Shown here one piece after another: positions 40,292 through 45,549 of a stretch of 55,236 nucleotides of DNA. The stretch spans positions 1-55,236 of the forward strand of contig JARLFX010000057.1 in the NCBI GenBank assembly GCA_031296355.1, read 5' to 3'. The position numbers and the translations under genes were made by a program. The notes beneath the pieces were generated by a model. That model was not told the origin of the DNA and made no database searches. It saw only the letters and a program-made list of their open reading frames with translations. The stretch comes from Acidobacteriaceae bacterium. GTDB taxonomy: Bacteria; Acidobacteriota; Terriglobia; Terriglobales; Acidobacteriaceae. Each line of letters starts with the position of its first letter. The stretch's first letter is position 1.

Positions 40292-40526
40292 GGATGGGGG
40301 TGTACCCCTCCCCCACCAAAACGCTAAATATCTTGTTTGCATGTATTTAGTGTTTTTTGTTGCGCTAAATATTTGGAAACATGATGTTTACGGGTAAATA
40401 TTTCATTCGCAATGGGTTAGGGAACTATCCGGTGCGACTGGAATCTTCTTCTTGTATTAATTGTAGCGATTTTAGATGGGAACTACGCCAAATTTTCTGA
40501 AGAAAGTTTGGTTCCTCGCGTTTTTT

Positions 40527-40603
40527 CATGGACGGTTTGTGGACAGCTCATGGATGACGCACGGTGATTGCATGGACAGTGCATGGGTGGCTCATGGACG
40601 CCG
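40527..40603 (+). repeat. Seven tandem 11-bp units, consensus CATGGACNGNN
   Basis: Consecutive 11-mers with no gap are CATGGACGGTT, TGTGGACAGCT, CATGGATGACG, CACGGTGATTG, CATGGACAGTG, CATGGGTGGCT and CATGGACGCCG. The period is one DNA helical turn and is not a multiple of three, so it is not a coding repeat. The array decays after 40604. Confidence 0.75.
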
Positions 40604-40731
40604 TGGCGTCCGGGGCGTTCGTACGGCGGAAGCTTTCTGGCGGTATGGGTGATGCGGGGAGCGCTTGAATTCTTGGGTGCGCTCAGAATGACTCAACGTG
40701 AGTTTACTGGCCTGGGGAATATGTATGCTGT

Positions 40732-40755
40732 CCCCGGATTACTCCCCGGATTACT
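40732..40755 (+). repeat. Perfect 12-bp tandem duplication upstream of the island operon
   Basis: CCCCGGATTACT occurs twice in direct contact, 45 bases before the first gene of the three-gene operon. It could be a paired regulator site in the promoter. Confidence 0.6.
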
Positions 40756-40800: not shown

Positions 40801-41505
40801 ATGGCTAAACCTCTATCATTCGGTGAATTCACACTGACTTCTGCAACCTGCGAAAGTAGGTACGCAAACGCGTATTTGCTTTACGATAAGACCGGTCAGA
40901 TCGTTCACCGTTTAGCAGAAGGATTAACAAATTTGGAGATTGCACAGGCCACCCCTAATCATACTGTGGTCAAGACTGACGAAGGAGTTTTTGCAATTGA
41001 ACTCGCAGCAAGTCGCGTTCAAGTTCTCCATCCAGAGTCGTCTCTGGAGTCATTTGGTAAGCATTGCGACTTTTTTTATGATGTCCTCTTCTCCGAACTT
41101 CAGATCAGGCTGTTAGCCAGAATTGGATTCCGGACTGCTTGGCGATTAGCCTTCGATACCGTGGAAGAATCAATCAATTTCATATCCACTTTAGAGGTTC
41201 TCAACACTGCTGAGAACGATCCTTTTCGTATTGGTTCTCCTATCTCCGAATGTACAAAGCGCTGGCAAAGCGACAAGTTGGGAATCAATTTTTCGGCTAG
41301 GATCGTCGATGGTGAGCTGTCTGCTGAATTGCCGCCTGAGTTTGGGGATGACCGAAATAAGATGGCTCGGGTCAGAGGCGTTATATTCGACTTGGACTAC
41401 TATACAGTGGCCCCGGTAGACTGCGGCCAGTGGCGACCTTCTGAATGGATCCCCATCACTACCCGCAAACTTAAGAAGGATATGGAAGCATTGATTGAAT
41501 TATGA
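40801..41505 (+). CDS. Unknown protein, island gene 1 (TIGR04255-like layout)
   Basis: A 234-residue soluble protein without signal peptide or helices spanning the membrane. I do not recognise it firmly. The central stretch SLESFGKHCDFF, RIGFRTAWRLAF and the C-terminal VIFDLDYYT followed by a helical tail recall the sporadically distributed TIGR04255 family (an arginine-containing G-L-R strand, then a D-x-D-Y strand and terminal helix), but this is a weak impression. There is no Shine-Dalgarno before ATG 40801, unlike most genes here. Base composition differs from the neighbours: 41161-41220 has 23 of 60 G+C, against 37 of 60 at 39601-39660. Its stop overlaps the next start (ATGA). Confidence 0.75.
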   Translation: MAKPLSFGEFTLTSATCESRYANAYLLYDKTGQIVHRLAEGLTNLEIAQATPNHTVVKTDEGVFAIELAASRVQVLHPESSLESFGKHCDFFYDVLFSELQIRLLARIGFRTAWRLAFDTVEESINFISTLEVLNTAENDPFRIGSPISECTKRWQSDKLGINFSARIVDGELSAELPPEFGDDRNKMARVRGVIFDLDYYTVAPVDCGQWRPSEWIPITTRKLKKDMEALIEL

Positions 41506-42104
41506 CTAGTACTATTACGCCTGACGTAATTCCGTTTCCAAGTAGATCGCGCGTCCGCTCTATAGAAGACTCCTACACAAATACTGCAGGTCTAAAGCGT
41601 AGCCAGCAAAACACACCATATAGCTCAGACATTCCTGTGATGGGAGTTGCTGGCACATCTGCGCTGAAATCGCATCCAATTTCCATAGACGTGTTATATG
41701 GCTCCATTGAAAATGGTGCTAAACATCCATTGGAAGCGCTGAATAGTCTAGCCCAAGTCATTGGCTTGCTTGAATTAGCCAAGGATGCATCAGCCGAGAG
41801 CGTATTGAAATCGGATGCTATTATGCAGGAATTTCAATTGGCGCTTAGGCAGCTCTTTAAGTTTCGGCAGAACTTGGGGGATGGTTATGGTCTAGTAGTT
41901 AATTGCACAGAGGTTGCGCTGATAAACCAGCGCGGAGTTCCGCTCAGCTCCTCACAAATCTCTTCTGTCTGGAGAGCCTTTCGTGCTTTACGAGAAACCC
42001 CTTTCCTGTCCTTTGATCGCGCTCTAGATTTGGTCGAGGACGTCGAAGCTGAAGGACTCGAAACTGACCCTCATGGCATTGGAGATTTACTAGGGGCAGA
42101 ATGA
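41502..42104 (+). CDS. Unknown protein, island gene 2
   Basis: A 200-residue protein of unknown family. The first 55 residues are Ser/Pro/Thr-rich and probably disordered (DVIPFPSRSRVRSIED). Residues about 60-120 are helical (LEALNSLAQVIGLLELAKDAS, FQLALRQLFKFRQNLGDGY). The end is acidic (LDLVEDVEAEGLETDPHGIGDLLGAE). An acidic, partly disordered protein directly before a nuclease-like gene is the arrangement of many antitoxins, but it is longer than most (inference only). It is linked by ATGA overlaps on both sides, so all three products should be made in fixed proportion. Confidence 0.75.
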   Translation: MTSTITPDVIPFPSRSRVRSIEDSYTNTAGLKRSQQNTPYSSDIPVMGVAGTSALKSHPISIDVLYGSIENGAKHPLEALNSLAQVIGLLELAKDASAESVLKSDAIMQEFQLALRQLFKFRQNLGDGYGLVVNCTEVALINQRGVPLSSSQISSVWRAFRALRETPFLSFDRALDLVEDVEAEGLETDPHGIGDLLGAE

Positions 42105-42880
42105 ACGCGTTCGTTGAAACGACTATTCTAACGGATGCCCTGCTCAAACCGGGATCCGCAAAAAACCTAGCGGCAAAGGCGGCGCTTAAACGCTATGCCA
42201 AGACCGAGCTACCTGTTTACGCGATACGCGAATTCAAGGCGGGCCCGCTACATTACTTTTGTTATTTTCACAATAAGCTTGTCACGACGAAGTCACTAGC
42301 TGACACCGTTGCTGCGCTGAACCAATTGTCGCCATTCCAACGCTATTTGAAGTCAACATCATTTGAAGCACTTGAAGCGGCGATTCGAATAGGTGGAGAA
42401 AAAGCTAATCCAGATGATGACCTTGCAGATCGTTATAGGCTTTCCACCGCTAAGCTCATTGTCCAAAGCTGGCGTCGACGGCGAAAACTTACTCATTCTA
42501 CGGTGCAAGACCTTCCTTGCTATGTTGAATGTGCGCCACAGCTAAATAAGGATGGAATCTTTGATTCAAAGCCACGGGATTGTGATCCTGCAGTAGAGTG
42601 TTGCCTTGCTAAGCAGCTTCGTCTGAATCCAGAAGCCCTAAGACTAATGCGAGATTCAATCCCGGAAACTTCTGTCCGACAAGAAGATCGCAATCGCCGC
42701 GCAGTACTAAAGCGATTGATTAAGCATCCCAAGGAGAGATTGGATAAGAAGTCATGTAAGCAACTAGGGGATGCATATTTCGCATTTTTCTGCCCTGAAG
42801 ATTCTGTGATTTTGACTACAAATATTAAAGATCACCAACCCCTAGCTGCCAGCATTGGGAAGGTCGTTGAAAAGCCTTAG
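42101..42880 (+). CDS. PIN-like nuclease, island gene 3
   Basis: The 259-residue protein opens MNAFVETTILTDALLKPGS, the beta1-alpha1 pattern of PIN-domain nucleases with Glu6 where Asp is usual. LPVYAIREFKAG (Glu44) and the C-terminal LGDAYFAFFCPEDSVILTTN (Asp224, Asn241, then Asp244) fit the second to fourth acidic positions. Between Glu44 and Asp224 lie about 180 residues, far more than the roughly 60 of VapC. This insert contains LPCYVEC and RDCDPAVECC, a possible zinc-binding module. Prediction: metal-dependent RNase or DNase acting as the effector of the operon. AGGGG lies 4 bases before the ATG. It could be an inactive PIN-like fold if Glu6 does not substitute for Asp. Confidence 0.75.
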   Translation: MNAFVETTILTDALLKPGSAKNLAAKAALKRYAKTELPVYAIREFKAGPLHYFCYFHNKLVTTKSLADTVAALNQLSPFQRYLKSTSFEALEAAIRIGGEKANPDDDLADRYRLSTAKLIVQSWRRRRKLTHSTVQDLPCYVECAPQLNKDGIFDSKPRDCDPAVECCLAKQLRLNPEALRLMRDSIPETSVRQEDRNRRAVLKRLIKHPKERLDKKSCKQLGDAYFAFFCPEDSVILTTNIKDHQPLAASIGKVVEKP

Positions 42881-43122
42881 CAGTGATGATTAATACGGGA
42901 ACAGCATACATAAAACCTTGTGCCCCGATCCTCCGATCGTAATTGCCGCGACCCAAAACCCGAAGTTACCGCGAAGATAACCGCGGAAAACCCGAAGAAA
43001 CCGGTAAGAAACCCGAAGAAACACCCATCTCACCCGCGGAAAACCCTAAGTCGCAAATTTGTCCACGAAAAACCATGCACTCACCGCGAGTTCACCGTGT
43101 TCGACCCATGTAAAAAACCGGG
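42881..43122. repeat. Right flank of the island: degenerate ACC-spaced repeats, periodic 11-bp units at 43056-43110
   Basis: Read on the minus strand, 43110 to 43056 gives five contiguous 11-mers: CATGGGTCGAA, CACGGTGAACT, CGCGGTGAGTG, CATGGTTTTTC, GTGGACAAATT. These share the CAYGG(T/A) core with the array at 40527, in opposite orientation. From 42959 to 43055 the plus strand shows looser units starting ACC every 9-12 bases (ACCCGAAG, ACCGCGAAG, ACCGCGG). An 89-codon ORF through this stretch is probably not a gene. Confidence 0.6.
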
Positions 43123-45549
43123 CTACTGCGGGAGAACGGGGAGGGCGATGGTGTCGATGGAGGTGGGATTGTCGCGTAGTTTCAGGTAGAGAAGTGTGCC
43201 GCTGGGGCGAGGAACCTGCACGCTGTTCGCTGTGAGATCGGCAGGAATATTTGCCGCAGTGGCGGCCAGAAAAGCGGGATCGGCGGAGATGGAATCAATC
43301 AGATAAAGGCTGCTGCCGGTGAGTGTGCACGGAGCAGCTGCTTTAGCCGGACAGCGCACATCCGTCAGTTCAGGCATGCGAATAAGATGCGCGAGAGGTT
43401 GCCAATCGCTGCTAATGCCGCTGGCCGTAACAGCGCGAAATCGCAGGTCGCCAAAGGCCGACGCGCCGAAAGCCTTAGCGGGATCAAGCGTGGCGAGCAC
43501 AGTCTGCCGGTCTTCAAGCACGAGCGAGCCATCGTCAAGCGAGAGTGTGGTGTGCAGCGAATTGTCGTGCGTTGCAACCTCAATCTTCTCGCTGCGTTCA
43601 AAGCCGTTTGGGCCATCTGACTTCACAAAAAAAGTGAGTTTTGCATTGAGCGGGAGATCGTCTGCGCTGGCGAATTCGATGGATGATCCGTGCGCGCTGG
43701 CAGCGGGCTGCACGCTTTTCTTAACCAGCGTGATGTGCGGGCGCGGTGGCTGTACGGTGAAACTGAAGTCGAGTGTGCGCCCATCCTTCAACGTGATGTG
43801 CGCCTTCTGCGGAACGCCGTGTTTCATGGCAAGCGCAGCCTGATCTTTCAGCGGCGTAAGCGTGATGGTCTCGGTGTCTCCCGTAGCAGTGATGTCGCCG
43901 GGTGCAAAGTGCGCGCCAGCGATCTCGACTTCAGCGACCTGTTCCAGGCCTTTGCCGGAGAGCGTAGCAGTGGAGTCGCCTGCATAGAACGTGAGTTTCT
44001 GCGGCGTAGGCGGGTCGGCGTAGGCGTTTACCTTTACGGAGTCTGGCTTGTCCTGCCCGAACTGCTTGACCTGTAGTGCGAGTTCGCCGGGCTGCACATC
44101 TTTCAGCTTCATGTTGACCTGCAGGAGATTGGGCTTGTCAGTGGAGCCGGGCTTCCATGTAGCGAGGAGCAGAGTACCGTCTGCGGTGTGGACCTGGATG
44201 GTATCAACACAGGCAGCGCCGGTGGAGCTGAGCTGGATGTGATCTTCGCGGCCAACGACGAGGCGGGTTGCATCTGCTGAATCGACCGTCCACTGCGACG
44301 CGGGGAGAGGCTGCAGCAGGAAGGCGGGGCCAGTGTAGGCATCGAAGCCCCACATGCCTTTCACGGTGCCAGTGACATCGGTTGTGCTGGTGAGGTCTTT
44401 GGCGGCGGCGAGATCGAGGATGAATCCTCCGCGAAGCGCATCGGCGACGAGTGGAAGGCGCACGGGATGGTCGCCGGAAATCTCAAGCACCAGGTTGTGC
44501 GCGAAGGCAGTGGAGAAGATGAGCGGCGCGCCTTCGACAGGCAGCACGAGGTCGGGGTTGCGCAGGCAGAGGACGCGCTTCGCATCGACCGCGCGAAGGG
44601 GCGGCATCTGCGCGGATTGTACGGCGGGCAGGCCGATGACGAGGACGGACTTGGGATTGTGGAACGAGGGCGGGTTGTTCAGCTTCAGGTTGAGGTCTTC
44701 GTTATCGGGCAGGCCAAGCGCGGGAATGTACTGATACTTGGCGGAGTGAATGCCGCTCATGATGCGAACGACGTCGACGATGGCCCCGACGTAGGCGGAG
44801 TAGTAGCCGCCCCCCATCATCTGGGTGGCGCTGGCGTTGGCCACGAGATCAGTGGCGGGGCCGGAGGTGAGCTGGGTGACGAGCGACGTGTGGCCGTCGT
44901 CCATCACGACGGCGTTCTCGCCGGCGGTAAGGCAGATGATCTGCTGGCCACTGCTGCGAAGGAAGCAGTCCTGGTTGATCTTGATATTCAGGCTGCGGGC
45001 GAGGAGGTCAGAACGCTCCTTGAGCTGCTTGGTATCGGAGCTGGGAATCTTTTCGATGGCGGCGACGAATTTTTCGTAGCGAACGCGATCATAGGCGGCG
45101 GCGTTAAGATCCTGCACGGCGCGGATGAAGGCTCCGGGACGGCCCTGGACGGCATTGCGCAGGGTGGAGAAGTCGCCGCCGGTGCTGGGCGCCAGGAAGA
45201 GCACAGCCTGCTGCGCGCCGTCGGGCACAAGCAGGGTAACGCCTTCCTGGGTGATGTGTTTATTCCAGATATCGGCGTGCGTGAACCATTTGTCGGGTGG
45301 CGGGTTAGTGGTGCCGCGGAGGAAACATGCGACGAGGAGATAGTGCTCGGACTGGGAGGCGGGGAAATCAACGTGGACCCAGAGACGGTCGCCGGGGGCG
45401 AGGTTGGGCACCTGTGCGATGGGGAGCTGCTGGTTGCCGCGCGTGACCTTGATCTGCAGGCGGGGCCCGCTGAGATCGAAGTTGGCGCCGTCAGCATAGG
45501 CGGGGAGACAGCAGAGCGAGGCGAGAAGGAGCGCGAGGAGCTTTCCCAT
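43123..45549 (-). CDS. Large exported protein of unknown function
   Basis: The 808-residue protein has a signal peptide (MGKLLALLLASLCCLPAYA). The mature part is almost entirely beta-type, with Ala/Leu/Thr/Asp-rich strands and no transmembrane segment. At about 20-110 a region resembles an Ig-like or bacterial surface domain (LQIKVTRGNQQLP). Residues about 215-330 include QDCFLRSSGQQIICLTAGENAVVMDD. The C-terminal half looks like two or three Ig-like modules (LTFYAGDSTATLSGKGLEQV, PHITLVKKSVQP). I do not recognise the family; similar long exported proteins are common in Acidobacteria. No clear Shine-Dalgarno is visible. Surface or periplasmic location is inferred. Confidence 0.75.
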   Translation of the reverse strand: MGKLLALLLASLCCLPAYADGANFDLSGPRLQIKVTRGNQQLPIAQVPNLAPGDRLWVHVDFPASQSEHYLLVACFLRGTTNPPPDKWFTHADIWNKHITQEGVTLLVPDGAQQAVLFLAPSTGGDFSTLRNAVQGRPGAFIRAVQDLNAAAYDRVRYEKFVAAIEKIPSSDTKQLKERSDLLARSLNIKINQDCFLRSSGQQIICLTAGENAVVMDDGHTSLVTQLTSGPATDLVANASATQMMGGGYYSAYVGAIVDVVRIMSGIHSAKYQYIPALGLPDNEDLNLKLNNPPSFHNPKSVLVIGLPAVQSAQMPPLRAVDAKRVLCLRNPDLVLPVEGAPLIFSTAFAHNLVLEISGDHPVRLPLVADALRGGFILDLAAAKDLTSTTDVTGTVKGMWGFDAYTGPAFLLQPLPASQWTVDSADATRLVVGREDHIQLSSTGAACVDTIQVHTADGTLLLATWKPGSTDKPNLLQVNMKLKDVQPGELALQVKQFGQDKPDSVKVNAYADPPTPQKLTFYAGDSTATLSGKGLEQVAEVEIAGAHFAPGDITATGDTETITLTPLKDQAALAMKHGVPQKAHITLKDGRTLDFSFTVQPPRPHITLVKKSVQPAASAHGSSIEFASADDLPLNAKLTFFVKSDGPNGFERSEKIEVATHDNSLHTTLSLDDGSLVLEDRQTVLATLDPAKAFGASAFGDLRFRAVTASGISSDWQPLAHLIRMPELTDVRCPAKAAAPCTLTGSSLYLIDSISADPAFLAATAANIPADLTANSVQVPRPSGTLLYLKLRDNPTSIDTIALPVLPQ

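What the first reader, a model, noticed from the sequence alone, without database searches (positions are those of the whole stretch)
40801..42880. Three-gene ATGA-coupled operon of unknown function in a low-G+C island, ending in a PIN-like nuclease
The sequence shows three genes with two 4-base overlaps, base composition unlike the flanks and no mobility gene. Gene 1 has a weak TIGR04255-like layout, gene 2 has a disordered N-terminus and acidic end, and gene 3 has PIN-type motifs. Tight coupling of a nuclease-like effector with two companion proteins is the architecture of toxin-antitoxin and small defence systems. I know of no named three-component system with this combination. The defence reading is inference.
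Basis: partly seen in the sequence, partly recalled or inferred. Interest (0 to 1): 0.8.

Follow-up and report, generated by a model that had tools for sequence, protein, structure and literature searches.

The report
Three-gene PIN-nuclease cassette, probably toxin-antitoxin
A small, probably mobile three-gene unit carries a likely RNA-cutting enzyme and two partner proteins; its first gene is a distant relative of a family whose genes usually head similar three-gene units with many different last genes, some of them known toxins, which suggests an undescribed class of three-part toxin systems.

The parts
40720..40744 (+). left arm of the flanking inverted repeat (25 nt, 22 of 25 complementary to the right arm)
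   Evidence: only two matches of the 22-nt motif (up to 3 mismatches) in the 55-kb window, shuffle mean 0; 0 of 500 shuffles and 0 of 453 real segment pairs reach the observed match
40801..41505 (+). gene 1, 234 aa: distant homologue of TIGR04255; predicted duplicated beta-alpha-beta (TBP/AdoMetDC-like) fold; proposed third component (antitoxin partner or sensor)
   Evidence: (controls)
41502..42104 (+). gene 2, 200 aa: middle protein with variable N-terminus and conserved remainder; proposed antitoxin
   Evidence: alignments; role inferred from position and from the modular middle genes of other TIGR04255 cassettes
42101..42880 (+). gene 3, 259 aa: PIN-fold nuclease split by an insert; acidic residues E6, E44, D224, D244; conserved cysteines C140 (42518-42520), C161, C167, C219; proposed toxin
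42888..42912 (-). right arm of the flanking inverted repeat, 7 nt after the stop codon of gene 3

Best explanation
A tripartite toxin-antitoxin-type cassette in a small mobile unit. SHOWN by computation: gene 3 is predicted to have the PIN fold with its four acidic positions; gene 1 is homologous to TIGR04255; the three genes stay together in order in the relatives located. INFERRED: gene 3 is a metal-dependent RNase toxin, possibly shaped by a metal-bound cysteine insert; gene 2 is its antitoxin; gene 1 binds gene 2 (by analogy through its N-terminal part) and controls whether gene 2 stays folded or stable. Loss or titration of gene 1 or gene 2, for example during phage infection or loss of the element, would free the nuclease and stop growth. 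The analogy is to toxin-antitoxin-chaperone (TAC) logic, with a TBP-like saddle protein where TAC has a SecB-like chaperone. My estimate is 0.55 for the toxin/antitoxin/third-component reading, and about 0.35 for gene 1 being specifically a stabilising or sensing partner of gene 2.
For: PIN fold and near-invariant acids: position 6 acidic in 127 of 128 aligned (E 108, D 19, 1 gap), E44 128/128, D224 127/128, D244 125/128; C140, C161, C167 128/128, C219 127/128 (120 of the 303 proteins were available). Same three genes, same order, overlapping or abutting, in 8 of 8 relatives; pairwise identities of g1-g2, g1-g3, g2-g3 correlate (0.70, 0.66, 0.82 over 36 non-independent pairs). Gene 1 is a TIGR04255 homologue (probability 98.3, E 1.8e-13 for the single comparison, 219 columns; cross-controls between g1, g2, g3 at most 1.3%). 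TIGR04255 in 793 genomes: 60 genomes, 65 places; second gene found at 61, within 30 bp at 57, exactly -4 at 28; third at 56, within 30 bp at 50; control genes by the same procedure 39 of 129 within 30 bp and 6 of 129 at -4. Pfam on 117 second and third proteins at E<=1e-3: PemK/MazF 3, PIN 3, PIN_3 1, HEPN 1, HNH 1, HicA 1. Zeta toxin annotated third on a plasmid. Module swap: L066/L067 g1 85% identical, g2 residues 1-76 55% identical, g2 C-terminus and g3 without a match at E<0.01; L058/L067 share g2 C-terminus (52%) and MazF (66%) with g1 29%; L040/L066 share g2 C-terminus (51%) and g3 (58%), g1 54%.
Against: No toxicity, binding or phage data exist. At most 10 of 117 second and third proteins of TIGR04255 cassettes match a known toxin or nuclease family; in the commonest cassette (clusters of 20 middle and 11 third proteins) none of the families listed fits either gene, so not every cassette is proven toxin-bearing. 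Window gene 2 shows no detectable homology to the middle genes of the other cassettes compared (best hhalign probability 1.7%), so its antitoxin role rests on position and analogy; gene 3 against the other cassettes' PIN proteins reaches only 10% (L036) and 2.1% (L047). Window gene 1 itself does not reach TIGR04255 by HMM. Foldseek gives no PDB match at E<=1e-3 for gene 3 (best 0.19), and the best Z (8.7) is little above what the tool calls common. PIN proteins also work in non-TA defence (DS-3, DS-5; PMC13092281 passages). Gene 3 (259 aa) is about twice the length of the VapC structures matched.
Confidence: 0.55

Rival explanations
1. Three-component TA in which gene 1 is a DNA-binding regulator of the operon, as omega is in omega-epsilon-zeta and PaaR in paaR-paaA-parE (both recalled, not from a call). 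Gene 2 alone neutralises gene 3.
For: Gene 1 comes first and its model resembles the duplicated TBP saddle, a nucleic-acid-binding fold. A TIGR04255 triplet with an annotated zeta toxin third exists.
Against: TBP-like and AdoMetDC-like matches are of middling Z (7-8) and mixed with enzymes. In some other cassettes an HTH domain sits in the middle gene instead (HTH_3 in L017; HTH-like by eye in L033/L034). The g2 N-terminus follows gene 1 in L066/L067, which favours protein contact.
Confidence: 0.2
2. Non-TA anti-phage system: the three proteins form an effector complex that is inactive until infection, so gene 3 alone is not toxic, as reported for the PIN systems DS-3 and DS-5.
For: DS-3 is a one-protein defence system with a PIN domain split between N and C terminus, DS-5 a PIN plus partner that is likely not a TA (PMC13092281 passages); gene 3 is also a split PIN. 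PADLOC candidate PDC-M32A, whose C-terminal part matches some TIGR04255 middle proteins, sits beside HsdM-like genes (by eye) in L080 and L081. A prophage-like region of a Pantoea plasmid carries a TIGR04255 triplet between lysozyme and terminase genes.
Against: Classical TA toxin families (PemK/MazF, PIN, HicA, HEPN) recur in TIGR04255 cassettes. The near flanks of L001-L007 look mostly housekeeping by eye. Gene 3 has no relative in the viral-contig scan or in phage records, and one TIGR04255 protein (L021) had none either.
Confidence: 0.17
3. RNA-processing or stress operon of the host: a PIN nuclease with two accessory subunits and no toxin role.
For: PIN-fold proteins include housekeeping RNases (protein-only RNase P is among the weaker matches).
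Against: Very sparse distribution: 2 of 299, 1 of 297 and 1 of 148 genomes in three phyla, one hit in each being the seed genome; foreign G+C; flanking inverted repeats here and tRNA repeats in L007.
Confidence: 0.05

Closest known systems
TIGR04255 (NCBIfam 'TIGR04255 family protein')
   Same: Gene 1 aligns over its full length in profile-profile comparison and heads a coupled three-gene operon like most TIGR04255 genes surveyed
   Different: Window gene 1 does not match the NCBIfam model at E<=10; identity to the 30 TIGR04255 proteins aligned is 8-16%
VapC-type PIN toxins (VapBC)
   Same: PIN fold and acidic residues; most of the best structural matches are VapC
   Different: 259 aa with an insert of about 130 residues holding conserved cysteines; two partner proteins, and gene 2 matches no known family
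Tripartite toxin-antitoxin-chaperone (TAC) systems, including CmdTAC
   Same: Three genes, one of them a third component that keeps the antitoxin folded or stable, in the Mycobacterium system through an added antitoxin segment (PMC5105189 and PMC11618068, abstracts)
   Different: Gene 1 is TBP/AdoMetDC-like in prediction, no SecB match was listed; the toxin is PIN-like; the proposed contact segment is N-terminal, in TAC it is C-terminal
Panacea (PanAT) toxin-antitoxin systems
   Same: One conserved family paired with many unrelated toxins (PMC8832971, abstract)
   Different: Panacea is itself the antitoxin domain in gene pairs; here the conserved protein is a separate first gene of three
DS-3 PIN defence protein (DefensePredictor)
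   Same: PIN domain split between N and C terminus (PMC13092281, passages)

Membership tests
PIN-domain nuclease superfamily | PIN fold | tested here: met
PIN-domain nuclease superfamily | conserved acidic active-site residues | tested here: met
   positions 6, 44, 224, 244 acidic in 127, 128, 127 and 125 of 128 aligned sequences
Pfam PF01850 PIN | HMM match | tested here: not met
   no match for the window protein at E<=10; 2 of 33 family members at best E 0.069
TIGR04255 | score over the curated cut-off of 30 bits | tested here: not met
   window gene 1 unmatched at E<=10; 4 of 9 gene-1 relatives match at E<=5, best 1.7e-4
TIGR04255 | homology at profile level and operon position | tested here: met
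   hhalign 98.3% over 219 columns, controls at most 1.3%; first gene of a coupled triplet
VapBC type II TA | VapB-type antitoxin next to the PIN gene | tested here: not met
   gene 2 has no Pfam, NCBIfam or PADLOC match at E<=10
VapBC type II TA | toxin neutralised by direct binding of the antitoxin | not testable with these tools
   needs expression and pull-down
Toxin-antitoxin-chaperone (TAC) | SecB-like chaperone gene | tested here: inconclusive
   gene 1 model best matches AdoMetDC, TBP and guanidino kinases; SecB is not among the rows listed
Toxin-antitoxin-chaperone (TAC) | antitoxin folding or stability depends on the third protein | not testable with these tools
   inferred only by analogy with the modular middle genes
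Panacea TA | Panacea (DUF4065) domain in the antitoxin | tested here: not met
   no Pfam match for gene 1 or gene 2 at E<=10
PADLOC candidate PDC-M32 | PDC-M32A and M32B matches | tested here: not met
   no PADLOC match for the window proteins at E<=10; only weak matches (E 0.015, 0.022) in the related cassette L014

The most novel reading that the evidence does not exclude
TIGR04255-type proteins are the constant component of an undescribed, widespread class of tripartite toxin systems: a TBP-like saddle protein controls a two-part antitoxin whose N-terminal segment docks to it and whose C-terminal segment is exchanged together with the toxin (PIN, MazF, HicA, HEPN, HNH, zeta and several unknown families). 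The window is an anciently diverged branch with a split PIN nuclease, carried as a mini mobile element.
Probability: 0.45. Interest if true: 0.9.

Novelty: new variant of a known kind. Interest (0 to 1): 0.77.

Why it matters
It gives a testable role to TIGR04255, a name found in 0 papers of the held open-access library (the same proteins under other names could be missed). If right, one accessory fold would serve many unrelated toxins in three-gene units, a tripartite counterpart of the Panacea network, and it would point to new toxin families among the unnamed third genes. It would also show such cassettes moving as units of 2.2-2.7 kb with no mobility gene of their own.

Tried and rejected
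Own-genome search: no genome is held. Homologue searches of genes 1 and 2 alone found only the window's own proteins; relatives were reached through the neighbours of gene 3. Gene 3 relatives: none in the viral-contig scan, plasmids or phages. SecB-like identity of gene 1: not among the structural rows listed, so not claimed. Homology of window gene 2 with the L015 middle gene, suspected by eye: not supported (hhalign 1.7%). Defence-island enrichment was not measured. Empty-site test: the downstream neighbour gene (43123-45549) was found in 63 of 120 genomes of the family of G002; in none of the 15 loci fetched was a match to the upstream aldehyde or proline dehydrogenase found within the about 1.5 kb held, so inconclusive. 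The inverted-repeat motif as a repeated element: 1 of 120 genomes of that family has one single match with 2 mismatches; no plasmid match. tRNA genes near other TIGR04255 loci: 5 of 65 loci against 1 of 15 comparison loci, no enrichment shown. In L004 and L006 a tRNA gene lies near the cassette but no duplicated tRNA end was found. TIGR04255 in viral contigs: alignment unusable; the single protein L021 found none. No TIGR04255 domain was detected in the PDC-M32A ORFs of L080-L082. Of the 65 survey places, 2 (L051, L052) score below the curated cut-off, and the 4 without a second gene all end at the contig edge (lengths). Dropped before counts: 5 of the then 41 TIGR04255 proteins (short or weak: L045, L048, L050, L051, L052) from the hhalign profile, and 6 more from the folding alignment. 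The coupling control includes the window's and L001-L007's own cassette genes, and in it as in the survey the script prefers starts near -4. Which member matched which Pfam family is inferred from the sequences, as that call gives counts only. Some third genes called by the script (for example in L054, L068, L047) may be chance ORFs.

Full report
OBSERVATION. The three ORFs, their two ATGA overlaps and the low-G+C patch are as described. No curated family matched any of the three proteins at E<=10 (one E=0.28 PHROGs match for gene 1). Homologue search: gene 3 has 303 proteins at E<=1e-3 including itself, of which the best 120 were listed; the best other identities are 58-59%, none of the 120 has a Pfam domain, and those with a source name are called hypothetical protein. 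Genes 1 and 2 found only themselves. The tool needs shared 5-residue words, so this meant fast evolution, not orphans, as the next step showed.

CONSERVED THREE-GENE ORDER. A scan of genome contigs with the gene-3 alignment gave 7 loci: two Terriglobia, one Acidobacteriaceae, one Bacteroidales, one Syntrophaceae, Reyranella and one Hyphomicrobiaceae. All 7 carry two genes of the right sizes upstream, overlapping or abutting. A search of 299 genomes of the phylum of the Reyranella genome found one more, divergent relative, L013, again with all three genes and short overlaps. So 8 of 8 relatives located have the order. Pairwise identities among the 9 cassettes are 16-46% for gene 1, 14-41% for gene 2 and 27-55% for gene 3. 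The unit is rare: besides the seed genomes, 1 further hit in 299 genomes, 0 further in 297 and 0 further in 148. The start of gene 3 in L001 and of gene 1 in L003 and L004 is not certain; rows used there begin at or near the conserved start.

THE WIDER CLASS. TIGR04255 was searched in 150, 247, 198 and 198 genomes of four phyla: 16, 21, 8 and 15 genomes, 65 places in all. At 61 places a second gene was found (the other 4 end at the contig edge), 57 of 61 within 30 bp, 28 exactly at -4; at 56 a third gene, 50 within 30 bp. The same procedure on 129 other genes gives 39 within 30 bp and 6 at -4. The 56 third proteins fall in 24 sequence clusters, 14 of them single. Pfam on all 117 second and third proteins found, at E<=1e-3, DUF7689 in 3, PemK/MazF in 3, PIN in 3, and PIN_3, HEPN, HNH, HicA, HTH_3 and HTH_23 in 1 each, plus ACT and hydrolase matches that look like chance neighbours. 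So at most 10 of 117 proteins match a known toxin or nuclease family; most have no Pfam match. By sequence clusters seeded on the recognised ones, HEPN-like third genes number 5, HicA-like 4, MazF-like 3 plus L046. A plasmid annotation independently gives TIGR04255, hypothetical, zeta toxin (107 bp between the first two, then a 4-nt overlap). A prophage-like region of a Pantoea plasmid carries a TIGR04255 triplet between lysozyme and terminase genes. On a Thermus plasmid TIGR04255 lies between a separate CopG-VapC pair and a Cas6 gene.

MODULE SWAP. L066 and L067 share gene 1 (85%) and g2 residues 1-76 (55%) but not the g2 C-terminus, and their third genes show no match at E<0.01 (an unnamed protein with a 'QDCD' motif against a MazF-like one). 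L067 shares the g2 C-terminus (52%) and the MazF-like protein (66%) with L058, whose gene 1 is only 29% identical. L066 shares g2 C-terminus (51%), g3 (58%) and gene 1 (54%) with L040; L036, with a VapC-like third gene, has 50-51% identical gene 1 to L066 and L067 but no match in genes 2 and 3. The middle protein thus has a part that goes with gene 1 and a part that goes with the toxin, as an antitoxin should. This is a few locus pairs, not a statistical survey; in most other related pairs all three genes change together. Window gene 2 has no detectable relation to these middle proteins (done before L056-L079 were fetched), so its role is argued from position.

MOBILITY. The operon lies between 25-nt inverted repeats, 22 of 25 complementary, 2143 nt apart. 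The motif occurs nowhere else in the window; none of 500 shuffled flank pairs and none of 453 real segment pairs of the window give a match as good. No clear target duplication is visible beyond a possible TA. In L007 the cassette lies between tRNA-Lys(CTT) and a copy of the tRNA's 3' end 2659 bp away (48 nt 94% identical without gaps, 60 nt 95% with one gap). No mobility gene is evident inside either unit, which fits non-autonomous mobile elements; the element families are not identified. No comparable repeat was found around L001-L003, L005 or L006.

LITERATURE. 'TIGR04255' occurs in 0 papers of the held library. TAC (PMC5105189, abstract; PMC11618068, abstract), Panacea (PMC8832971, abstract and opening text; PMC10440598, passages) and DefensePredictor (PMC13092281, passages) are the nearest described systems. 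PMC3710099 passages report TBP-like domains fused to HEPN nucleases. PMC12429752 passages list PDC-M32 in prophages. PMC10865869 was searched for five terms without a hit.

VERDICT. A real, conserved, probably mobile three-gene cassette with a PIN nuclease, best read as a tripartite toxin-antitoxin-type system headed by a distant TIGR04255 homologue. Architecture is shown and fold predicted; toxin, antitoxin and partner roles are inferred; defence is possible and untested.

Noticed in passing
L007:6331-9081: In the Hyphomicrobiaceae MAG the three genes are the only evident cargo of a 2.66-kb island between tRNA-Lys(CTT) and a duplicated tRNA 3' end, with no integrase seen.
   Followed up: partly
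L016, L018, L023, L074, L032, L040, L049, L066, L033, L034, L017, L077: Recurring unnamed third-gene (in L077 second-gene) proteins share an N-terminal 'QGD/QGE'-like start and a '(S/T)(Q/N)xCD'-like motif by eye; a script test with strict motifs kept 7 proteins. Possibly a new toxin or enzyme family.
   Followed up: no
L080, L081: PADLOC candidate PDC-M32A lies beside HsdM-like genes (by eye), and its C-terminal part weakly matches the middle protein of the TIGR04255 cassette L014.
   Followed up: partly
L013:477-1364: A RAYT/Y1-type transposase-like gene (by eye) lies next to the divergent cassette.
   Followed up: no
L002:8936-10210, L003:3628-4899, L020:1-654: Adenosylhomocysteinase-like genes (by eye) neighbour three of the cassettes, two of the gene-3 type and one TIGR04255 type; perhaps an insertion hotspot.
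   Followed up: no
window 42956-43050 and 40524-40603: Short degenerate direct repeats in the spacers just outside the operon.
   Followed up: no
L016, L023, L033, L066, L067 middle genes: Middle proteins of several TIGR04255 cassettes carry a hydrophobic stretch in their N-terminal part (by eye), which might be the segment that needs the gene-1 protein.
   Followed up: no
L065 middle gene (L065:1106-1477:-): Its C-terminus looks like a VapB-type antitoxin tail (by eye, recalled motif) in front of a VapC-like third gene.
   Followed up: no
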